NCBI GenBank assembly: GCA_961205875.1
Contig: OY540816.1
Location: 4,908,701-4,972,700 of the forward strand
DNA length: 64,000 nucleotides
Source of the DNA: Sialis fuliginosa
Lineage: Eukaryota; Arthropoda; Insecta; Megaloptera; Sialidae
Direction of reading: 5' to 3'
This document shows positions 2,971-63,228 of this stretch, one piece after another. The notes beneath the pieces were generated by a model that saw only the letters and a program-made list of their open reading frames with translations, was not told the DNA's origin and did no database searches. Each line of letters starts with the position of its first letter. Position 1 is the first letter of the stretch. The translations under genes were made by a program, and so were the position numbers.

Positions 2971-3113
2971 AAAATTTTTAACGTTGGATAAAAAATAATA
3001 ATTTTAAAATAGTTGAAAAGGTCAAATAGTTGATTTTAAATTGGGTTCAATCAAACCAGTTTTCTGAAATCGATGGAGATATGTAATAAAAATTAAAATA
3101 GTTGCATCTTTCG

Positions 3114-13735: not shown

Positions 13736-13831
13736 CCTTATATTATATAATATTCTTTACGTTTACAAAAATATAAACAATATAAAGCTTAACAAATACA
13801 AATCCCCTAACCATAAAAATTGTAAGAGTTT

Positions 13832-13876
13832 AGACTTACACGTGTTTCAATAGCAATGCTATCATCATCAGAGTCT
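13832..13876 (-). ncRNA. Hammerhead-like ribozyme motif 1a
   Basis: Read on the minus strand: helix I strand AGACU, core CUGAUGA, helix II AUAGC-AUU-GCUAU set off by UG and U, core GAA, helix III ACAC/GUGU, cleavage base A in the triplet GUA, and helix I strand AGUCU pairing fully with AGACU. The order and core match the hammerhead ribozyme. The tiny helix III without a loop and the unpaired bases between core and helix II match the small hammerhead variants described in Penelope-like elements, which act as dimers. Predicted cut between 13837 and 13836. Activity is not shown. Confidence 0.55.
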
Positions 13877-13893
13877 TAAAGTCAGTGTCTTTA

Positions 13894-13938
13894 AGACTCT
13901 GATGATGATAGCATTGCTATTGAAACACGTTCAAGTCT
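13894..13938 (+). ncRNA. Hammerhead-like motif 1b, decayed
   Basis: The plus-strand mirror of motif 1a in the other arm of the palindrome. Helix I (AGACU/AGUCU), both core parts and helix II are kept, but helix III reads ACAC/GUUC with two changes, which breaks pairing at the cleavage site. Probably inactive. Confidence 0.45.
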
Positions 13939-14035
13939 AAACTCTTACAATTTTTATGGTTAGGGGATTTGTATTTGATAAGTCATAACCATAGTTTTTG
14001 TCGGTTGTTTGTTATAATATAAATTGTAAGAGTTT

Positions 14036-14080
14036 AGACTTACACGTGTTTCAATAGCAATGCTATCATCATCAGAGTCT
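14036..14080 (-). ncRNA. Hammerhead-like ribozyme motif 1c
   Basis: Exact copy of motif 1a in the second tandem unit. With 1a it forms a direct pair on the minus strand, spaced 204 nt, so a minus-strand transcript could in principle be cut twice to free a 204-nt RNA that is largely self-complementary. Confidence 0.55.
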
Positions 14081-14097
14081 TAAAGTCAGTGTCTTTA

Positions 14098-14142
14098 AGA
14101 CTCTGATGATGATAGCATTGCTATTGAAACACGTTCAAGTCT
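14098..14142 (+). ncRNA. Hammerhead-like motif 1d, decayed
   Basis: Exact copy of motif 1b in the second tandem unit, with the same damaged helix III. Confidence 0.45.
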
Positions 14143-14228
14143 AAACTCTTACAATTTTTATGGTTAGGGGATTTGTATTTGATAAGTCATAACCATAAGT
14201 TTTTGTCGGTTGTTTGTTATAATATAAA

Positions 14229-14689
14229 GCTTATTAATTTGAAAAAAAATTACAATTACAACAATTTTACATATTGATAAATAAATAAAGAAAATAAAAA
14301 TAAATCTCAAGAATGTAGCTCAACGTATTTATTGATTACCGCAAACTCTTCAACTGTCAGAGAAGGGAGAGAGAGGACAGTGGGAGCTCTTCAGCAACTG
14401 ACACTTGTGACGGTGCAACATTACAACCACGGTACGTAGGTGGTGGCTGTGTATGAACAGGTGCAAGGTTGGGGGGGGGGGGAGACTCACACGGCAACCG
14501 CGAACTGTAATCTGTCATCAACAGTTGATGCGGACGACATTTGTGTTACAACCATTATAAATATAGTATATAGCGACGTTAAAAATATATCAATAATAAA
14601 TAAGTTTATAATATATGTATGTATCTCCACAATTTCTTGAAAAATGACATAAGCAAAGTATGATTCACAGAATCATTGCCAGGTTAAAA
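14229..14689. other. Non-repeated stretch
   Basis: Moderate GC around 14340-14530, a G run at about 14470. The plus frame at 14440-14640 has no recognisable domain. Confidence 0.4.
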
Positions 14690-16670: not shown

Positions 16671-17440
16671 TTTTATTTTTTGAGGTTAGGAAAAAAATCT
16701 GACGTGATTGGGGTATTTGGACTCTGGATTCGATTTCATCATGCTCGATTACATATAGTATGGTGGGTCAGATCCCCGCAAACAAAAGTTGTTGTTTTTT
16801 GTGGAGCTGTAAATTATCTGTAAAATATGCGCCCTCGATGATTTTCAAATCTTATATTGTGACCAAAAGATTGTAACCCTGTTATATATGATTATAATTT
16901 ATTCCAGTTTAAATATATTTATAATTTAATTACAAATATAAAGACAAATAAATTTAAATAATTTCCTGGTAGACCACAGGTCATTGTCAGTTCTCAAATT
17001 ATTACATGCGGTTTGCCTTTGCTTCTGATCGTGTACTGAACAAGAGTATACGATACATATTGAAATGGACAATTCAGGTACAGAGAGATAATGTGATTAT
17101 CTTTTACCTCTAGACTCAAAGCCACCAGAACCGCAAACACATTCATCTATAACAAAACCAGATACCCACACACATAAACAGAAGCAGATATATATGTATG
17201 ATATAACGATAGAGTATACACCAACACTATGTATACAGGCTGTTAGAAAATCATATTTACACAAGAAAATTACAATTCCACAGTGGTAATGTTTAACATT
17301 TACATTAGGCGCCAGTTATTGTCAAAAATAATTATATAGCCTTGAAATGTGCAACAAAAAACATCTTTGAGAGAATCGGCAATGATTCATAAATATTTTT
17401 CCTTTTTTTACTGGTGCCCATGTTTTTCGAAATATTAATT
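16671..17440. other. Non-repeated AT-rich stretch
   Basis: No feature supported. 17090-17230 is somewhat less AT-rich. Confidence 0.4.
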
Positions 17441-18195
17441 AGATAGGTCTCCTAAAATGCAATAAAAAATGTTATATGACATTTTGATTTTAATCCTTCA
17501 ATCATGATATATTTGCATTCAAAGTCGTGATCAGAGCGTCCCCACACTTAATTTCTAAACTATCTATTCAAAAAACCTGAAAAAATTCGAGAATGTAGCT
17601 TTTAATTAGTACTTCCACTGAAAATTATAACGAACACTGTCAAAATTATTTTGGACCCCCCTCCCATAGACTGAAAAGTGAACTCACATTAGATAGGTCT
17701 CCTTAAATGCAACAAAAAATGTTAAATGATCTTTTGATTTTAATCCTTAAGTCACGATATATTTGCATTTAAATGTCGTTGTCAGAGCGTCCCCTCCCCC
17801 CTTACTCCTTAATTTCTAAACTATCTATTCAAAAAATCTGAAAAAAATTCAGAATAAAGCTTTTAATTAGTACTTCCACTGAAAATTATAACGAACACTG
17901 TCAAAATTATTTTGGACGCCTCCCATAGACTAAAAATTGTACTCAAATTTTTTTTCACTTACCCCATTGAGTGGGGTATCCTTAGATAGGTCTCCTAAAA
18001 TGCAACAAAAATGTTTTATGACCTTTTGATTTTAACCCTTCAGTCACGATATATTTGTTTTTCAATGTGGTTATCAGAACCTTCTCCCCTTCTACTTTCT
18101 AAACTATCGATACAAAAAATCTAAAAAAAAATCCAGAATGTAGTTTTTAGTTAGTACTTTCAATGAAAATTATAACGAACACTGTAACTAGAATA
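17441..18195. repeat. Satellite-like tandem repeat, family I copy 1
   Basis: Three units start with AGATAGGTCTCC at 17441, 17691 and 17984, so the periods are 250 and 293 bp. The second unit carries an extra CACTTACCCCATTGAGTGGG. Units share CACGATATATTTGCATT and ACTTCCACTGAAAATTATAACGAACACTG. A related two-unit block lies at 47440. Confidence 0.85.
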
Positions 18196-38896: not shown

Positions 38897-38913
38897 CAGT
38901 CTGGAACTGTTAG

Positions 38914-38957
38914 GCTCCTGATGAGGACTTCTTGTGAAGTCGAAACACGTGTCGAGT
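38914..38957 (+). ncRNA. Hammerhead-like ribozyme motif 2
   Basis: In order: helix I GCUC (38914-38917), core CUGAUGA (38918-38924), a G, helix II GACUUC-UUGU-GAAGUC (38926-38941), core GAA (38942-38944), helix III ACAC/GUGU (38945-38952), cleavage base C of GUC (38953), helix I GAGU (38954-38957). All core positions of the hammerhead are present. Helix II is a perfect 6-bp stem with a tetraloop, and differs in sequence from the motif at 13832 while keeping its pairing. The extra G beside the core is the one non-canonical point. Flanks do not show a reverse transcriptase. Confidence 0.55.
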
Positions 38958-39433
38958 GACATTGTTTTATTGTGGTTAAGGTGTATAATTTTAGTTTAAG
39001 TGACTAGAAACCACGGTTTCTCCGTTTTTCCAGTAGCAATCTCTAGTAATAAGTATTATCAGTGGTAAGCAAGGGATAAGTGAAATCGGCCCCCGTCGGG
39101 GGGCACAAGGTCTAAGGGGACGGTAAATTCAGGTTGATGGTGATAGAAAAGATAGCAAGTTTATGCTTAAGAAAAGGTTCAACTGAAGGAGGTGTCAAAA
39201 ATTACAATGAAAAAAAAACTCTTTTTCAAAAGTAGCGCAAAATAAGTTCAAGGGAGTTGAATTCGACATGATGACGAAAAAATGTATGGAGGTGCTTTTT
39301 TCAGTTTTTTACCAGGAGAGCAGCGACTTTTAGCTACGTCTCTTAGTATTAAGAGATTATTTTTATCCAATTAACAAAATTAAAACGAGGGGAATAAACA
39401 AATTGTAATTAATTAGAAAGTATTGCTTCCTCG
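38958..39433. other. Non-repeated stretch
   Basis: A GC-richer block with CCCCGTCGGGGGGCACAAGG at about 39092. It follows the hammerhead-like motif directly and could hold the remains of its parent element, but no frame was found. Confidence 0.4.
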
Positions 39434-49832: not shown

Positions 49833-50541
49833 TCTATACATATTATAAAACAAGTCCTTCGCCGCGTCTGCTTGCCTGTGTATGATTTTCTCAGTAACTA
49901 CTAAACGGATTTGACCATTTTTAATAAAATTTTATTTTTGTATTCGAGGTTTTAGGTCATTGGTTGAATAAAAAAATAGTTATATAGGATGTAACACTTT
50001 TTATTATTGATATACGTTTCGTCTTATTAAGACTTCTTCAGTATCTTATTTTTTGTTTCTTAAGTTTATACAAATTACCATTTTAACAATACGAATTTTT
50101 TTCTGTTACATTTCTCTTTGAAATTATCTTATCAATGGTATTTTGTCGAACAATTAGATGATTTTGGCACATGCTAACAATTAAATATTTTGAAATAAAT
50201 TGATTGAAAATTGAAACATAAAGAAACATTTCACTTCCAAGAAAGGTAAAATATCGAAATTAATTATTATGATTATTGCTAACCTATTTATTTATTTATT
50301 TTCGATTTTCATATAAATTCTAAGACAAGACCTGGTGTTTCCTGGGAGTTTTAAAATATAATTTTAAACGAATATTTCAGTAACTACTGAATGGATTTTA
50401 TTCCGGTTTTCACTAATGGATAGGTTATGTTTAGGTGAATCGTGTGTTGTGAGTATGTTGGGTGGGCACGTTGGGTGGGAATGATTACTTTATGTTTAAT
50501 TAAATTAATATTCCCGGATAACACCGGGTCCAATGCGCTAG
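49833..50541 (+). mobile_element. Non-autonomous Helitron, family E, with nested family P sequence
   Basis: Starts TCTATACATATTATAAAACA after an A, then AGTCCTTCGCCGCGTCTGC and CAGTAACTACTAAACGG. It ends with hairpin CCCGG-ATAACA-CCGGG at 50513-50528, TCCAATGCG and CTAG at 50538-50541 before a T. The CAGTAACTACTGAATGG phrase occurs again at 50380, so DNA of family P origin (about 49935-50330) has entered. No Rep/helicase. Confidence 0.8.
50009..50045 (-). ncRNA. Hammerhead-like ribozyme motif 3
   Basis: On the minus strand: helix I GAUA, core CUGAAGA (fits CUGANGA), an A, helix II GUCUU-AAU-AAGAC, GAA, helix III ACGU, cleavage base A of GUA, helix I UAUC. Helices I and II pair perfectly and differ from those at 13832 and 38914. 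Helix III is only AC/GU and could close only between two molecules, as in dimer-active variants. Confidence 0.48.
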
Positions 50542-55497: not shown

Positions 55498-56241
55498 AAA
55501 AAATCTTCCAAGTAAATGCACAGTGCTTCGTCGTGCTGAATTCACCAAAGGTATTTAATTTTTGAAAAATTTAAATAAAAACTGATAAAGTGTTCAGATA
55601 AATTGCTTGGAATTGGTAAACCATTTAATTTTTAAACAATTTTACTAAAAAATATTAGTTCCAAATTTTTCTTAAGGCGCACCTGATTATTTTTTCGTAT
55701 ATTTTTAATTTTGTGACAATTTTAATCTAAATCTAAATTTATGCAAACGTAAAAATGACATTTAATATGTCAAAGTAAATATCAATTTAAAAAAAATAAT
55801 ACAATTTTTAAAAGCAAATTAAGATAAATCTTTGTAAGGGAATATTTAACAACAAACGTTGTAGACCTATATTATACGAATTATAATTATATATACTATA
55901 TTATACGAATTGTCGTTCTTGAAATATCTTGAAAAATAAATATTTTGGGATGTCACCCCCCCCCCCCCCCCTTACACACGATTTTGAAATGGAACCGTCC
56001 TCAAGCCAGACCCAACCATTCAACCAAGTTTCATTAATATCGGTTCAGTGGTTCATAAGTTATGCGTGTGACAAGGATTCAGGGGACAGACACACAGACA
56101 GACAGACACGGAACGAAAAGTGTTTGTTTGACCTGAAACAGAATGATCAATTTAAAATTTTAAAATCGAAGAACAATTATTTTGTCTCATTCTAAAACGA
56201 TCACAAAGCTTCTCGTATCTTCGATATTGCGAGGAAGCAAA
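55498..56241 (-). repeat. Family A copy 8
   Basis: Minus-strand copy from CTTCCAAGTAAATGCACAG to GATATTGCGAGGAAGCAAAA, with a run of about 14 C at 55959-55972 where other copies have CCCCTCCCCC. The frame 55929-56195 follows the repeat. Confidence 0.82.
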
Positions 56242-56354
56242 ATTGCTCTCATCACTGAAAGCAGGATTCTTAAACTGGTGATACGTTTCATTTGTACGTC
56301 TAATGTGTTGGTAATTAAAAATAATTCGGGCAAGACATACACGAGTGTATGCCA

Positions 56355-56636
56355 TAAGGGTTCCGAAGTACGTACTACGTGAAATGTTTGGAACCACTTA
56401 CAGGTGCATTTTTAAGTTAGAAAAAAATATATAAAAGTGTCAAGTTCTACTAATTGAGATCTATATTTTGACACCCCACTTGCCTAGATATCAAAATAAA
56501 AAAATCTATGACGCCCCTCCTTATAATTCCAAAATTTAAAATTATATTGTTGACTTTAGTATTTGAGTGAAAAGGACGGACGGACGGACGACAAAGTGAG
56601 ATTTATAGGGTTTCTTCGGAACCCTAAAAAGTAAAT
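56355..56636 (+). repeat. Family H repeat, copy 2
   Basis: Starts AAGGGTTCCGAAG and ends CTTCGGAACCCTAAAAAG, so short inverted ends are visible in this copy. GGACGGACGGACGACAAAGTG lies near the right end. Related to 6639-7092. Confidence 0.72.
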
Positions 56637-56640
56637 AAAT

Positions 56641-57001
56641 CAGGGCTTCGAACCGGAACTGAACCGAAAACCGGAAAAACCCGTTATTTTTTGCCGGAAC
56701 GAAAACCGGAACAGAACCGAAATAAAAATATCGGTTTTTACGGTTCAGTACATGTTAAAAAACGCGCGTTAACATGATCTTATTTCCCACTTCAATTGTC
56801 GTTCGGACCATCATACAAGTACCATAAAATATTCTAAATTATAGTAGAAAATTTTTTTTTAATTAATGACTCGGAGCTGAACCGAAAACCGAAAAAACCG
56901 TTATTTTTTGCGGATCGAAAACCGGAACCGAACCGAAATATATTTTTTTACTCGAACCGGAACGAAAACCGAAACGAAAAAAATAACGGTTCGAAGCCCT
57001 G
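56641..57001 (-). mobile_element. hAT-type family G copy 3
   Basis: 361 bp, ends CAGGGCTTCGAACCG and GGTTCGAAGCCCTG, perfect 8-bp duplication AAATAAAT at 56633-56640 and 57002-57009. Opposite orientation to copies 2 and 4. Confidence 0.87.
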
Positions 57002-57009
57002 AAATAAAT

Positions 57010-57762
57010 AACCAAACACTAATTTCGTATATAGGAAAAAAAACAGTTAGCAACTAGACAGGTCGTGTTACACCGTTGTCATAGTTTTATTTAAAGCCAA
57101 GGACAAATGCGATATTTTTCTTCCCTTTACATACAGTCGCCTGTTAGCGTTTATAGTATCAAGACACACGCAAAAGACATTCAAACGAATGCATTTGTGA
57201 CCGAGCATTGTCACGGAACATGTAAAGAAAATGTAGCGTATGTTCAAACTAAGGTATCAGATTGTTATAGTTAATCTAAGAACTAGCGTTTTGTTTGGTG
57301 AATTATTTACTAATGGCCGAAACTTTTAAAAATTATATTAATTAATGTTCTGCATCGGCAGGGCTGGCAATAATATGAGTTTAAACAACCTGAATCGATT
57401 TCTAGTTGATTGTATTAATTAATATTATTAAATAATTCTTTAACATTTGAGGTAATCATTTTTTTTGTACAATTCAATTCTTTATTATTTAAGGAACATT
57501 TTAAGACCAAAAAGAAAAAAAATCGCCTTAGCGCTTTTTTAATAATTTATAAAACAAAAAATACATAAATTGTGTGGAGGTCATAACGCGATTTTTTAAA
57601 ATTAATTATTATTTATTAACTTTTTACTCGACAAAAATAAAAAATAAAAAATTATTGGAATTCGAACTTTTATAATTTTTTGTAAATTTTGAAATATAAA
57701 ACAAATGGTATTTTATATCGAAAAATCTCAAGAGACACAATAATTTGCTTTTATTAAGGGGA
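57010..57762. other. Non-repeated stretch
   Basis: 57060-57250 is slightly less AT-rich and unique. No frame or motif supported. Confidence 0.4.
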
Positions 57763-58215
57763 TTCCAAAACATATTTGATATTATCGATACGATAATTAA
57801 TACCCGAGATATGAATTATTTTCAATTTTGAACGGCCGCCATTTTGAAATTCATAACTAACACACTTAACTGAGGTATTTACAAGATCAATTTTTCTACC
57901 AAGTTTCAAAAAGATCGGAAGAACACCTGAAAAGGTTTTAGAGTCCGCAAGAAAAAGGCCTAATAATAAAATTGAAAATAGTTCATATCTCGAGTACAAA
58001 TTATCGGATCGATAATATCAAATATGTTTTAAAATCCTCTCAATAAAACCAAATTATTGTATCTCTTCTGATTTTTCGATATAAAGCACCGTTTGGTTGA
58101 TATTTTAAAAGGCTAGAGACTCCACAAGAAAAAAAGCCTTATAATAAAATTGAAAATAATTCATAACTCGGGTACTAATTGTCGGATCGATATTATCAAA
58201 TATATTTTAGAATCC
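57763..58215. repeat. Cluster of one inverted and two direct repeat units of about 75 bp
   Basis: AACATATTTGATATTATCGAT at 57770 is mirrored at about 57995-58030 (ATCGATAATATCAAATATG) and repeated in that second orientation at 58165-58205. Each unit includes AAAATTGAAAATA and CATATCTCG or its variant. 57754-57999 is not a gene. Confidence 0.7.
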
Positions 58216-58348
58216 TCTCTTTATCACCGCTTTGTAATCAAAAAAGGAAATTTATCTTGCACTTAATGGTTCAGTGATTTAATGTCAAATTTTACAAAAC
58301 TAACATAGGATTAGGGAAACCACCACACAACAATTTATTGTGAATTTT

Positions 58349-59147
58349 GCTTCCTCGCAATATCGAAGATACGAGAAGCTATGTGATCGTTTCTGATTGA
58401 GACAAAAAAATGTTCTCCGATTTCAAAACTTTAAATTTATTTATCCGTTTCACGTCAAGGCAAACACTTTTCGTTCCGTGTCTGTCTGTCTGTCCGTGTG
58501 TCCGTCCGTCCGTCCGTCCCCTGAATCCTTGTCACACGCATAACTCATGAACCACTGAACCGATATTATTGAAACTTGGTTGGATGGTTGAGTTTGGTTT
58601 GAGAACGGTCCCATTTCAAAATCATCAAAATCGTATGTAAGGGGGAGGGGTGACACCCCAAAATATTTATTTTTCAAGATATCTCAAGAACGACACATGT
58701 TATGAGAAAATTTTATAGAATATTTTTTGTAGAGCATTAAATTTCCTATAATATGGGTCTACTACGTTTGTTGTAAAATATTCCCTTACAAAGATTTATC
58801 TCAATTTATTTTAAAAATTCGTGTTTTGTTTTTCTAAATTGATATTTGATTGGATATATTAAATGTCATTTTGACGTTTTAAATGTAATTTTGGCGTTTT
58901 AAATGTCACTTTGACATTTTAAATGTCATTTTGACATTTGCATTTTAGATTTAGATTGAAATTGTCAAAAAATAAAAAATATATGAAAAAATATTCAGGT
59001 GTGTTTTAAGAAAAATTTCGAACTAAGATTTTTTAGTAAAATTTGTATAAAAATTAAATGGTTAACCAATGCCAGGCAATTCATCTGAACACTATCGGTT
59101 TAGTGAATCTAGCACGAGGAAGCACTGTGCATTTACTTGGCAGATGT
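58349..59147 (+). repeat. Family A copy 9 (near complete)
   Basis: TTGCTTCCTCGCAATATCG to GCACGAGGAAGCACTGTGC and GGCAGATGTTTTTT. The AAATGTCATTTTGACGTTTT unit is repeated about four times at 58860-58945, a family-specific mini-array. Confidence 0.85.
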
Positions 59148-59512
59148 TTTTTATAACATTTTGTAAACAGTAAATACGTTAACGTTTACTTTTTTAAAGA
59201 AGTGCAATTTGTTTTGTAGTTTTCTTTTTGATTCAATATCTAGCTAGTGAATTAAATTTACTTTACTTCAGTATCGACAGTATGTACGCTATTATAGTTT
59301 AATAGAGAAATACTTGTATGAAGTCTTGATAAGTTAGCATTACAAAGACAAAATGCAATAGATACACTTTATTTTCAATAAATATAAGCTTTTTTACTAT
59401 CGATTTTTCTGAAGTCGGTTTAAATCAAAGATGAAATACATCATTTGAAAACTAACATAATTTTTGAGCCATCAAAAGATTATATTCCAATATAAATCCT
59501 GGAACTATTACA
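59148..59512. other. AT-rich DNA, no feature seen
   Basis: No credible gene or repeat boundary. Confidence 0.4.
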
Positions 59513-59723
59513 AAGCAAAATTAATCATGATTAGTTAATCGACTATTTTAAACCATAATTATATTAATTCTTTACGTTAATTATTGTTATGGTGAATATT
59601 CTATAGAAAATAATAATCACAATTAATAAATGGACTGTAAACTAACCGTGATTAAATTTAAGATTAACGTTAAATCATGGATTGAAAATGGACGATTAAC
59701 TAATCGTGCTTATTTTTGCTTTA
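59513..59723. repeat. Inverted repeat, arms about 75 bp
   Basis: GCAAAATTAATCATGATTAG TTAATCG at the left pairs with CGATTAACTAATCGTGCTTA at the right, diverged. Words GATTAA/TTAATC recur throughout. Confidence 0.6.
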
Positions 59724-59861
59724 TACAATCTAACATTAGACTCCTAAACATGTGACTAATAAATCATAGTTTCTCTGTTCTATTTCAAGTATTTTTTAAA
59801 ATATTCCGTTTCCTTATTTACCACGGTATAAATACATATTTTAAGATATATAAAAAAACAT

Positions 59862-60857
59862 CTGCCAAGTAAATGCACAGTGCTTCCTCATGCTAAATTA
59901 ACCAAAGGTAGTTACTTATTCCACAATTTAAATAAAAACCAATAGTGTTTATATAAATTGCCTGGAATTGGTTTAACAATTTAATTTTTATACACTTTCA
60001 CTAAGAAATATTAGTTCGAAATGTTTCTTAAAATGCACCTGAATATTTTTTCATATATTTTTAATATTTGGACAATTTCAGTCTAAATATAAATTTATAC
60101 ATATGTCAAACTGATTTTTTAAACGTCAAAATGACTTTTAATGTATCCAAGCAAATATCAATTTAGAAAAACAAAACACGAATTTTTAAAATAAATTGAA
60201 ATAAATCATTCTAAGGGAATATTTTACAACAAACGTTGTAGACCCATATTATAGGAATTTTAATGCTCTACAAAAAATATTCTATAAAATTTTCACGTAA
60301 CATGTTTCGTTCTTGATATATCTTGAAAAAATAAATATTTTGGGGTGTCACCCCTCCCCCTTACACACGATTTTGATGATTTTTATTTTTTATATCCTTT
60401 TGTTAATTTGACCTTAAAACCACCTTGACCTTGACTCAATATAGAAAAGCGGACCCGAAAACCTACCTGTACATTTTTTTCAGATTTTTGTAATGGCTTC
60501 TTGTTTATTTCACCTTGAATCGACCTTGACCCTTCACTCGATACAGAAAAGTAGACCTCGGATTCGGATTTAGCGACCCCGAAAACCTCTGAATATATTT
60601 TTTTTAGATTTTTTTGATGGTTTTTTGGTAATATGACCTTGAAATAACCATGAAGATCGAGTTTGCGGACCCATGTTCTATGAACTACTTTGATCACTAT
60701 ATTATGTAGTATTTATATCCGTGGGTTTGGTCAAAATCCACCGAGAATGTTTTTCCGTGGGTTTTGTGCGGGGTCCTTTAAAATTTTTAAATCGGAGAAC
60801 ATTTTTTTTGTCTCATTCTAAAACAGTTTCTCGTATCTTCGATATTGCGAGGAAGCA
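59862..60857 (-). repeat. Family A copy 10, central part replaced
   Basis: Minus-strand copy from ACATCTGCCAAGTAAATGC to GATATTGCGAGGAAGCAA. Between about 60380 and 60779 the usual GACAGACA part is replaced by a tandem array with units of about 120 bp (ACCTTGACCTTGAC, GAAAACCT, TTTTCAGATTTTT). The minus frame 60383-60697 is that array. Confidence 0.8.
60380..60779. repeat. Minisatellite within family A copy 10
   Basis: Roughly three diverged units of about 120 bp, then two copies of CCGTGGGTTT near 60720 and 60755. No match elsewhere in the window. Confidence 0.65.
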
Positions 60858-60914
60858 ATATAAAATTACATCTTTGTGTATGATATATTACAGAAAGATA
60901 CTATATATAACAAG

Positions 60915-61263
60915 CAGAGCTTCGAAGCGATATTTTTTTCGTTTCAGTTTTCGTTCCGGTTCGAGTAAAAAAAATTATTTCGGTTCGGATCTAGTTTTCG
61001 TTTCGCAAAAAATAACGGTTTTTCCGGTTTTCGGTTCAGCTCCGAGTGATTAATTAAAAAAAAATTATTTGTATTAAAATTTCTTTTTCTACCATAATTT
61101 AGAACATTTTATGGTACATGTATGGTCACGACAATTGAAGTGGGAAAGAAGATCATGTTAACACGCGTATTTTAACATGTACTGAACCGTAAAATCCGGT
61201 ATTTTTATTTCGGTTCTGTTCCGGTTTTTCCGGTTTTCGGTTCAGTTCCGGTTCGAAGCCCTG
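60915..61263 (+). mobile_element. hAT-type family G copy 4
   Basis: 349 bp, ends CAGAGCTTCGAAGCG and GGTTCGAAGCCCTG, perfect 8-bp duplication ATAACAAG at 60907-60914 and 61264-61271. The 110-codon frame 60721-61053 runs across the boundary and is chance. Confidence 0.87.
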
Positions 61264-61344
61264 ATAACAAGTATTATGAAAATTAATTAAACCGTAGTTA
61301 ACAATATGCATATTTGAAAATAAATGAGATATATTATATATTGC

Positions 61345-61816
61345 TAGAGATTGGAAAAATAGTTTTTCAACTATTGCGAAAAATGTAACTATTGTAATTT
61401 TTATTACATATCTCCATTGATTTCAGAAAACTGGTTTGATTGAACCCAATTTGAAATCAACTATTTACAACTATTTTACCTTTTCAACTATTTTTAAACT
61501 ATGTGCCTTTTTTTGATCCAACGTTAAAAATGTTCATTACATATTTATTTGTTTTTCCTTTTTTTTTTAGCTTCTCAAATCTATCTAGACTCGCATAACA
61601 TGTTTTCTTCGAAAATTTCAGATTTGACACTTTTTACCAATACGTTAATGTCACTAATTATTGATTAAATCGAAAAAAAATGTATTATTGTAAAAAATTA
61701 TGTTACTATTTCACAACTATTTTGATAAAAAACTATTTGCCAACTATTTTACAGAAAAAAAATCAACTATATAGTAACTATTTCATTGAAAATAACAACT
61801 ATTTTTCCAATCTCTA
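61345..61816 (-). mobile_element. hAT-type family F copy 5 (intact long form)
   Basis: 472 bp with ends TAGAGATTGGAAAAATAG and CTATTTTTCCAATCTCTA. Flanks TATATTGC and ATTATTGC agree in six of eight bases. It is the long form against which the insertions in copy 2 were recognised. No transposase. Confidence 0.85.
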
Positions 61817-61824
61817 ATTATTGC

Positions 61825-62123
61825 ATGTTATTGACAGAACGTACGTGCATAAGTAGATTGTATGTACCAATATGTAAAATGAGATTGTAAATATAGAATT
61901 GACCTAATGAATCAATATTAATGTAATTTAGTATGTATGTATTTAAAAACGAAGCGTAATCCACCAACCTTGTACATAAATTACTAATAAGAATTGCAAA
62001 ACATGTTATGGTTATGGATATTAAATTTTCATAATGCCAATTATTATTTTGGATATTAAAATACATGTAGAGGGTATAATTTTTTAGAGATAAAAAATAA
62101 TCGTATAGGTATAAACATTTTTT
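61825..62123. other. AT-rich spacer
   Basis: No feature seen; the frame 61818-62066 has no motif. Confidence 0.4.
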
Positions 62124-62820
62124 TGCTTCCTCGCAATATCGAAGATACGAGAAGCTTTGTGATCGTTTTAGATTGAGACAAAAAAAATGTTCTCCGATTT
62201 CAAAATTTTAAATTTATCTTTCCGTTCCACTTTTCATTCCGTGTCTCTCTGTCTGTCCGTCTGTCCCCTGATTCCTTGTCACACGCATAACTCATGAACC
62301 ACTGAACCGATATTATTAAAACTTGGTGAGATGGTTGGGTCTGACTTGAGGACGGTTCCATTTCAAAATCATCAAAATCCTTTGTAAGGGGGAGAGGTGA
62401 CATCCCAAAATATTTATTTTTTCATGATATCTCAAGAACGACACATGGTACGTGAAAATTTTGTAGAATATTTTTTGTAGAGCATTAAATTTCCTATAAT
62501 ATGGATCAACGGTTGTTGTAAAATATTCTCTTACAAAGATTTATCTCAATTTATTTTAAAAATTCGTGTTTTGTTTTTCTAAATTGATATTTGCTTGGAC
62601 ATATTAAATGTCATTTTGACGTTTTAAATGTCATAATCAGGTGTGTCTTAAGAAAAGTTTCGAACTAATATTTTTTAGTAATATTGTATTAAAATTAAAT
62701 GGTTAACCAATTTCAGGCAATTTATATAAACACTATCGGTTTTTATTTAAATTGTTGAATAATTAACTACCTTTGGTGAATTTAGCACGAGGAAGCACTG
62801 TGAATTTACTTGCCAGATTT
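62124..62820 (+). repeat. Family A copy 11
   Basis: TTGCTTCCTCGCAATATCG to GCACGAGGAAGCACTGTG, with the stretch between AAATGTCAT (62630) and CAGGTGTGTC deleted. Confidence 0.82.
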
Positions 62821-63228
62821 TTTTTTTAATTGATGAATAATATTTAAAATTATTAAGACCGAGACGAATCTACCAAAAAATCAAATATAAATTTCGTTAT
62901 TAATTCTTGTTTAATACACTTTTACCTTCAGTTTCATGCAATAAAATAATATGCAAATATAAAATTTATCACTGCAGTCATTCCAAAATAAAACAATCAA
63001 CAAACGGAAATTGCGCCCCAAAAGTCTCTTCCGCTTGCATCACTGGCCATCACTAAATATTGCGATTATTTTCAGTACATAGGAAGAGCACATAGATGAC
63101 TAACACGGTGATAAAATATCTACGTTTAAAATAAAAACTATAAATTGTTACAATAATACAATAAATCAAATATTCTGTAAATTTTATCTTGCTAAATTAA
63201 GTACGTATACAATTAAAATCTCTATATA
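62821..63228. other. AT-rich DNA, no feature seen
   Basis: No credible gene or repeat boundary. Confidence 0.4.

What the first reader, a model, noticed from the sequence alone, without database searches (positions are those of the whole stretch)
13832..14142. Tandem 204-bp unit with hammerhead-like motifs on both strands of a hairpin
Each unit is a near-perfect palindrome, with an intact hammerhead-like motif on the minus strand and a decayed one on the plus strand. The two minus-strand motifs lie in direct tandem 204 bp apart. Cleavage at both would free a 204-nt, largely self-paired RNA with hammerhead sequences on both strands, an arrangement that recalls retrozymes and viroid-like circular RNAs, here encoded in an insect chromosome. 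The units differ by a single base, so the duplication is recent.
Basis: partly seen in the sequence, partly recalled or inferred. Interest (0 to 1): 0.85.

Follow-up and report, generated by a model that had tools for sequence, protein, structure and literature searches.

The report
Palindromic scrap of a hammerhead-bearing Penelope retroelement
The hairpin is a short, recently copied fragment of a Penelope-type jumping gene that carries a hammerhead-ribozyme motif; it is probably not a viroid-like RNA circle, but its many palindromic relatives may record how such elements insert into DNA.

Summary
Window 13792-14219 holds two near-identical hairpin units 204 bp apart. The minus strand carries a 45-nt type I hammerhead-like motif; the plus-strand copy is decayed. 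The retrozyme/viroid reading is mostly unsupported. In the host genome (392 Mb) the unit is a dispersed family: 39 further copies fetched, 38 with 8-14-bp direct repeats at their flanks, nearly constant outer ends, variable hairpin tips. The same motif, letter for letter, lies at both ends of an 815-codon open frame with reverse transcriptase and (weak) GIY-YIG matches (L257). So the unit is the hammerhead-bearing pseudo-LTR of a Penelope-like element (PLE), inserted as a head-to-head inverted pair. A second PLE family, with a better motif at window 38914-38957, shows the same architecture; its stems differ from the first by paired changes. Typically the sense arm runs from a putative transcription start to a 'tail' end; partner arms, where present (29 of 49 copies), mostly stop about 33-36 nt short, resembling the two reverse-transcription start sites reported for an Anolis PLE. 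The 204-bp tandem looks like a local duplication: 69 other locus records (67 places) show none of that spacing. Cleavage and circular RNA were not testable.

The parts
13779..13791 (.). left copy of 13-bp flank repeat AATATAAAGCTTA (putative target-site duplication)
   Evidence: read directly; 38 of 39 other copies have 8-14 bp direct repeats at their flanks
13792..13883 (-). unit 1 antisense partner arm (inverted pseudo-LTR, lacks the tail), with intact hammerhead-like motif
   Evidence: arms; family ends
13832..13876 (-). type I hammerhead-like motif; predicted cut between 13837 and 13836 of the minus strand
   Evidence: model R1 14.2 bits E 0.02; identical to the PLE motif in L257
13884..14014 (+). 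unit 1 sense pseudo-LTR arm, from putative transcription start to end of tail
   Evidence: by comparison
13894..13938 (+). sense hammerhead-like motif, decayed (stem III lost)
   Evidence: 12.1 bits E 0.13; sequence
13979..14014 (+). tail: 36-nt extension present on the sense arm only; in the PLE it is leader sequence ending 5 nt before the start codon
   Evidence: sequence
13817..14020 (.). first copy of the 204-bp tandem duplication
14021..14225 (.). second copy of the tandem duplication (one extra A)
14021..14087 (-). unit 2 antisense partner arm, shortened by the duplication boundary
14036..14080 (-). second minus-strand hammerhead-like motif; predicted cut between 14041 and 14040
14088..14219 (+). 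unit 2 sense pseudo-LTR arm with tail
14098..14142 (+). second decayed sense motif
14221..14233 (.). right copy of 13-bp flank repeat AATATAAAGCTTA
38897..39036 (+). pseudo-LTR copy of a second Penelope-like family (family B) in the same window
38914..38957 (+). type I hammerhead-like motif of family B
   Evidence: Rfam RF00163 17.7 bits, below cut-off 34; R1 17.7 bits E 0.001

Best explanation
The locus is a non-autonomous copy of the hammerhead-bearing pseudo-LTR (pLTR) of a Penelope-like element, inserted as a head-to-head inverted pair and later tandem-duplicated. Likely steps. (1) Inferred: the PLE mRNA starts at a TATA-box promoter inside the pLTR, about 15 nt upstream of the hammerhead core. 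(2) Inferred from published PLE biochemistry: the PLE protein nicks both target strands about 12 bp apart, and reverse transcription starts inside the mRNA leader, not at its 3' end. (3) Read from copy anatomy: one arm begins at the end of the tail just before the start codon, the other about 33-36 nt further in; both run back towards the mRNA 5' end and join at a variable tip, giving a palindrome between short target-site duplications. (4) Read from copies: arms of one copy share variants, so both come from one template molecule or from each other. The hammerhead belongs to the PLE; in most copies it had not cut the RNA that was inserted. The 204-bp tandem arose later by local duplication. 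The confidence given is for the identity (inverted PLE pLTR pair); for two-strand priming rather than self-priming I put about 0.6.
For: The window motif is identical over 45 nt to the one at both ends of an 815-codon open frame in L257 (the stop-to-stop frame starts inside the first motif, the first Met is residue 33). That frame matches RVT_1 at E 2.7e-13 and GIY-YIG at E 0.0023. In L191 the same motif and tail follow an RT/GIY-YIG frame. The tail string occurs 359 times in the genome, reversed control 0; CTGATGA...GAAACACGTGT 1754 times, control 0. Flank repeats >=8 bp: 38 of 39 copies chosen by similarity (no control run there), 18 of 29 chosen by tail position (random pairing of flanks 6.6%), 11 of 20 of family B (1.3%). 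Partner arm: 18 of 29 (family A) and 11 of 20 (family B); outer end 25-41 nt short of the tail end in 17 of 18 and 9 of 11; none at the tail end. Commonest sense-arm 5' ends (7 of 29 at -130; 8 of 20 at -138) lie 33 and 30 nt after the start of TATA boxes. Arms share a variant string in 10 of 10 family B copies, permutation P 4e-5 (a narrower search string had given 7 of 7, P 0.0046). Between the two families, 5 of 10 hammerhead pairs change on both sides and 60 of 60 cells pair. Published PLEs have inverted pLTRs, a 31-bp tail on one of them, TSDs of 8-10 bp in several copies and none in others, TATA+Inr, palindromic junctions (PMC3846280, passages); hammerheads, cutting and extension of both strands, and two RT start sites that bound the tail (PMC11167929, main-text section read).
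Against: GIY-YIG scores below Pfam's curated cut-off; no tree places the RT. Eleven of 29 family A and 9 of 20 family B copies show no partner arm; the same numbers show no flank repeat >=8 bp, and a few counted repeats lie 7-14 nt from the arm's end. One family A partner end (-57) and two family B ends (-116, -316) do not fit. [quoted passage not shown] In family A, single-position differences between arms are three times as many (18) as shared ones (6). Covariation rests on one split between two families, and one of its measures (pairs changed on both sides) was reached by 62 of 500 shuffles. Transcription start, reverse transcription and cleavage are inferred, not observed.
Confidence: 0.93

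Rival explanations
1. Non-LTR retrozyme: an independent element whose tandem hammerheads cut a multimeric transcript into 204-nt monomers that circularise and re-insert.
For: Type I hammerhead-like motif, 204-bp dimer within the published 150-450 bp range, low G+C (as is the whole window, 29.5%), direct repeats longer than 4 bp, highly self-paired RNA (PMC7229834 passages; PMC4918200 passages).
Against: The motif is shared with an RT/GIY-YIG element. Of 69 other family locus records (67 places) none has a 204-bp tandem and one has another tandem spacing. Insert ends match PLE leader positions. The core sits in a hairpin about 30 kcal/mol better.
Confidence: 0.04
2. Same identity, other route: the inverted arms arise by self-priming (the first cDNA, or an antisense RNA template, folds back at its end and copies itself), as proposed for rotifer PLEs, rather than by separate priming from both target strands.
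For: Variable tips; arms that share variants (10 of 10 in family B; 6 shared changes in 5 of 38 family A copies); palindromic junctions and the proposal in PMC3846280 (passages).
Against: Fold-back gives no evident reason for the partner arm to stop about 33-36 nt short in two families. That site seems to serve as an end on its own: of eight stretches fetched downstream of other PLE frames, five (L258-L261, L263) leave PLE sequence near it (by eye). An Anolis PLE has two RT start sites bounding the tail.
Confidence: 0.35
3. Ordinary foldback DNA transposon (MITE) with terminal inverted repeats and a chance hammerhead-like string.
For: Long near-perfect inverted repeat, high copy number, flank repeats.
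Against: Flank repeats vary in length, one end carries an asymmetric tail, and the sequence is part of a PLE.
Confidence: 0.02
4. Hairpin-RNA (endo-siRNA) locus.
For: Transcribed, it would give a long dsRNA hairpin.
Against: It is one copy of a dispersed mobile family. No target gene was sought and small RNA is not testable here.
Confidence: 0.03

Closest known systems
Penelope-like elements with pLTRs and tail (Penelope of D. virilis, Adineta vaga Pen families, Poseidon PAc of Anolis)
   Same: RT + GIY-YIG open frame, hammerhead near the pLTR/ORF junction, direct and inverted pLTRs, 30-40 bp tail on one inverted pLTR, inverted pLTR shorter (37 bp in one Adineta copy), TATA/Inr, TSDs in many copies (PMC3846280 passages; PMC11167929)
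   Different: Here ORF-less inverted pLTR pairs are common: 15 of 29 tail-sampled family A copies have both a partner arm and a flank repeat, which scaled to 359 tail hits suggests a couple of hundred. The Adineta passages mention only several solo pLTRs without TSDs. Hammerhead and start sites lie before the start codon here, inside the ORF in PAc
Metazoan non-LTR retrozymes
   Same: Type I hammerhead, small size, low G+C, direct repeats over 4 bp, self-paired RNA (PMC7229834 passages)
   Different: No multimer arrays in the sample; sequence belongs to a PLE; insert ends not set by cleavage in 25 of 29 copies
pDo500 satellite of Dolichopoda cave crickets
   Same: Insect DNA with hammerheads (PMC2837043 passages)
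   Different: Tandem satellite, not a dispersed insertion
Avsunviroidae-type viroids with hammerheads on both strands
   Same: Hammerhead sequences on both strands of a self-paired RNA; an extra nucleotide in a viroid hammerhead core is reported (title in a reference list, PMC3705267)
   Different: Chromosomal PLE fragment; both-strand motifs come from an inverted pair

Membership tests
Penelope-like element (source family) | One ORF with reverse transcriptase and GIY-YIG endonuclease | tested here: met
   P0002 from L257: RVT_1 E 2.7e-13; GIY-YIG E 0.0023, below curated cut-off, GIY...YIG motif read directly
Penelope-like element (source family) | pLTRs with hammerhead on both sides of the ORF | tested here: met
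   L257 motifs at 411-444 and 2998-3031 of the reverse strand, open frame 436-2880
Penelope-like element (source family) | Inverted pLTR shorter by ~30-40 bp than the tail-bearing one | tested here: met
   17 of 18 and 9 of 11 partner arms 25-41 nt short
Penelope-like element (source family) | Short target-site duplication in many copies | tested here: met
   38 of 39; 18 of 29 and 11 of 20 in the other samples
Penelope-like element (source family) | RT falls in the PLE/telomerase clade | not tested
   no tree built; NCBIfam's only match is a weak group II intron RT model, E 2.5e-8, far below its cut-off
Penelope-like element (this window copy as autonomous element) | own ORF | tested here: not met
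   no open frame of >=110 codons in 13779-14233
Metazoan non-LTR retrozyme | Type I hammerhead in tandem repeats of 150-450 bp | tested here: inconclusive
   dimer here; none of 69 other locus records has a 204-bp tandem
Metazoan non-LTR retrozyme | Independent of an autonomous element's own sequence (my reading of the class) | tested here: not met
   sequence is a PLE pLTR
Metazoan non-LTR retrozyme | Circular RNA, self-cleavage | not testable with these tools
   needs RNA
Hammerhead ribozyme, Rfam RF00163 | Score at or above gathering (34 bits) | tested here: not met
   finding motif unlisted at E<=10; family B 17.7 bits; best in genome 22 bits, 73 of 31351 candidates scored
Hammerhead ribozyme, Rfam RF00163 | Core CUGANGA...GAAA, three stems, UH cleavage site, covariation | tested here: met
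   extra nucleotide after A9 in both families; one family split only

The most novel reading that the evidence does not exclude
These palindromic pLTR pairs are end products of a two-strand PLE integration reaction in which the two nicked target strands start on different sites of the same mRNA leader (tail end on one, about 33-36 nt inside on the other), so that the 5' leader alone has become a high-copy, SINE-like palindromic parasite of the PLE. In 29 partner arms (two families) none starts at the tail end. Against it stands the in vitro report of no strand difference in start sites.
Probability: 0.45. Interest if true: 0.65.

Novelty: new variant of a known kind. Interest (0 to 1): 0.5.

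Why it matters
The papers seen here leave open how Penelope-like elements insert and why they carry inverted repeats, a tail and a hammerhead. This genome offers many ORF-less insertions from two PLE families (probably a couple of hundred in family A alone, extrapolated) in which both start points and the junction can be read. That makes self-priming versus two-strand priming, and the role of the ribozyme, testable by counting copies. It also warns that a hammerhead on both strands of a hairpin need not mean a viroid-like RNA.

Tried and rejected
A strict hammerhead scan with no offset in stem II gave nothing and briefly suggested a false motif; a relaxed scan found it. Rfam misses the finding's motif; most of the 36 sub-threshold hits are microRNA models that fit any long hairpin. 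Alignment A1, which included the window motif, was dropped as circular in favour of A2. Outside the genome: no match in phages; 0 exact hits in viral contigs and genome contigs; no confirmed relative of the PLE protein in viral contigs; none in PDB sequences at E<=0.01. Five viral-contig hits to CTGATGA...GAAACACGTGT did not look like relatives by eye; one, L121, has hammerhead-like stems but G at position 17. The genome-wide Rfam search at E<=10 also rings in 11 of 14 control genomes, so its 22-bit best hit says little. The MITE reading was dropped once the PLE ORF copies were seen. The fold of the single-arm PLE leader is no more stable than shuffles (z -0.67). An unbiased sample by the internal start site could not be drawn. 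In one search my automatic search for the start codon failed; its place was read by eye.

Full report
OBSERVATION. The tandem 204-bp unit is there: the two units differ by one inserted A. Each is a hairpin with arms of 97 and 72 nt and folds far better than shuffles. The minus-strand motif at 13876-13832, repeated at 14080-14036, fits a type I hammerhead: stem I of 5 bp, the CUGAUGA and GAAA cores, a 2-bp stem III with loop ACGU, and UA at the cleavage site. Two oddities probably explain why Rfam misses it: one extra nucleotide after A9 and a G.U pair at the base of stem II. U-U mismatches at this place and weak stems are reported in natural hammerheads (PMC3088659 passages); a viroid hammerhead with an extra core nucleotide is known to me from a title in a reference list. 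As a bare motif it is not decisive: model E 0.02 per window, 0.0013 comparable chance motifs per 64 kb, about 8 per genome of this size.

A SECOND MOTIF IN THE WINDOW. The same scan found 38914-38957 on the plus strand. Rfam Hammerhead_1 gives it 17.7 bits, below the 34-bit cut-off; model R1 gives 17.7 bits, E 0.001. It has the same string GAAACACGTGT and also an extra nucleotide after A9. Genome-wide, Rfam's best score is 22 bits, E 1.49, with 73 of 31351 candidates scored; the same search rings, below cut-off, in 11 of 14 control genomes. Homology had to decide.

FAMILY A. In the host genome (G000, 392,097,322 bp, 20 contigs) the unit has 1187 first-look candidates; 40 places were scored and match. 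I fetched the 39 other than the window. Orientation below is that of the window's plus strand. Nearly all begin with TCAAATAC and end with TTTGTTA; L148, L150, L151, L159 and L171 depart by a base or more at one end; the hairpin tip varies. Direct repeats of 8-14 bp (mode 12) flank 38 of 39; the exception is L166 (no control was run there). Both strands keep the hammerhead core in 30 of 39. In the window copy the first T of TCAAATAC is A, and the 13-bp repeat AATATAAAGCTTA lies at 13779-13791 and 14221-14233.

A SAMPLE NOT CHOSEN BY SIMILARITY. The tail string occurs 359 times (reversed control 0). The first 30 places, all on contig C1, were taken; L191 was set aside because it supplied the query, leaving 29 (two of them, L181 and L185, are places also in the similarity sample, as L143 and L134). 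An inverted partner arm is present in 18 of 29. Its outer end lies 33 or 34 nt short of the tail end in 9, within 25-41 nt in 17, and at -57 in one; none reaches the tail end. The alignment can run about 3 nt into an AT-rich flank; counted from TCAAATAC the offset is 36 nt. Sense-arm 5' ends peak at -130 (7 of 29). Flank repeats of >=8 bp: 18 of 29, against 6.6% for random pairing; 15 of 29 have both partner and repeat. The sense core is intact in 16 of 30 and both arms in 5 of 30, so the similarity sample is enriched in young copies.

FAMILY B. The element at 38897-39036 has 1814 candidates, 40 scored. I fetched the 20 best of the 39 other places. By the rule, 11 of 20 have a partner arm; 9 of the 11 end 27-36 nt short of the tail end (five at -34), and two do not (L217 -116, L226 -316). 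One search, with a lower bar, also shows 11 of 20, with L221 in place of L226. Flank repeats of >=8 bp: 11 of 20, against 1.3%. Seven copies extend upstream, and there an open frame ends with a GIY-YIG-like domain about 50 nt before the hammerhead (PF01541 E 0.0019, below cut-off).

THE PARENT ELEMENT. That protein has 152 matches in the genome (150 of 1039 candidates scored). A group at about 53-58% identity includes places next to family A motifs. L191 shows an RT/GIY-YIG frame, then the family A hammerhead, then the tail. L257 shows hammerhead, an 815-codon open frame (stop to stop; first Met at residue 33), hammerhead and the start of the tail, with the C-terminus of another copy upstream, that is, tandem PLEs. 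The frame matches RVT_1 at E 2.7e-13 and GIY-YIG at E 0.0023, the latter below cut-off. The window's minus motif and the L257 motif are identical. The tail is leader sequence ending 5 nt before the start codon (sequence printed, read by eye).

HAMMERHEAD AS A CONSERVED FOLD. Aligning eight motifs (six distinct) of the two families and counting ten pairs (two of stem I, six of stem II, two of stem III; the third stem I pair was left out because the alignment misplaces a gap there), 60 of 60 cells pair and 5 of 10 pairs change on both sides. No shuffle of 500 reaches the covariation score, but 62 of 500 reach the number of doubly changed pairs; slid controls collapse. These changes reflect one split between two families.

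MECHANISM. Published PLEs supply the frame. Adineta PLEs have inverted pLTRs, a 31-bp tail on one of them, a shorter inverted pLTR, TSDs of 8-10 bp in several copies and none in others, TATA and Inr, and palindromic junctions explained by self-priming (PMC3846280, passages). The Anolis PLE protein cuts and extends both strands, starts inside the RNA, and its two start sites bound the tail; its hammerhead is not needed for insertion in vitro; no difference in start site between strands was seen (PMC11167929, main-text section). Here the two outer ends fit such start sites, and the commonest 5' ends lie 33 (A) and 30 (B) nt after TATA boxes, as expected for mRNA 5' ends. In 25 of 29 family A copies the sense arm passes the predicted cleavage site, in the commonest class by about 50 nt, so those templates were uncut; L193 starts within 1 nt of the site. 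Arms of one copy share their variant string in 10 of 10 family B copies (permutation P 4e-5; first run with a narrower string 7 of 7, P 0.0046). In family A (38 of 39 copies, L147 left out) 6 changes in 5 copies are shared, against 18 unshared single changes and deletion runs in four copies, which may have come after insertion. So the arms come from one RNA or from each other. Of eight stretches fetched downstream of other PLE frames, L258-L261 and L263 leave PLE sequence near the internal site without the tail, L264 carries the tail, L262 breaks off earlier, and L265 is unclear (by eye; insertion ends were not proved). That favours two real start sites over fold-back. Self-priming remains open at about one third.

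A 204-nt circle would need the tandem. Among 69 other family A locus records (67 distinct places) none has it; L147 has a 128-nt tandem. The duplication is best read as local and recent. In the palindromic RNA the ribozyme competes with a hairpin that is about 30 kcal/mol better. Cleavage, circles and expression cannot be tested here.

LIMITS. Searches score only the best candidates, so copy numbers are lower bounds. Cervera and De la Pena 2014, on PLE hammerheads, is not held and is known here only as cited in PMC11167929 and PMC6431247. Of the papers listed I read passages or a section of five (PMC11167929, PMC7229834, PMC6431247, PMC4918200, PMC3846280) and saw no description there of high-copy ORF-less inverted pLTR pairs; most subscription papers are not held.

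Noticed in passing
window 38897-39036: Second Penelope-like pLTR family (B) with a better-scoring type I hammerhead, in the same window as the finding.
   Followed up: yes
window 50008-50046 (minus): Weak hammerhead-model hit, 13.0 bits E 0.061, with a 1-nt insertion in the core; family not examined.
   Followed up: no
G000:C4:26093740-26093779 (L174): Best Rfam Hammerhead_1 hit of the whole genome, 22 bits E 1.49; its relation to families A and B was not checked.
   Followed up: no
L147 (G000:C6:23997550-23998350): Another rearranged family A copy with two palindromes 128 nt apart.
   Followed up: partly
L257 (G000:C9:1293000-1296100): Tandem Penelope-like elements with long open frames (815 and 711 codons), possibly recently active.
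   Followed up: partly
L182 and L186: Two different family A copies on C1 carry the same 14-bp flank repeat TAATTATTATATTA; perhaps insertions into copies of one repeat.
   Followed up: no
window 14936, 22794, 31890, 46276, 58859: Related 20-bp AT-rich units (such as AAACGTCAAAATGACATTTA) form short tandem arrays at several places.
   Followed up: no
window 17437-17949: Tandem repeat of 261 bp, two copies, 86% alike.
   Followed up: no
window 55700-62900: Cluster of long inverted repeats, perhaps nested mobile elements.
   Followed up: no
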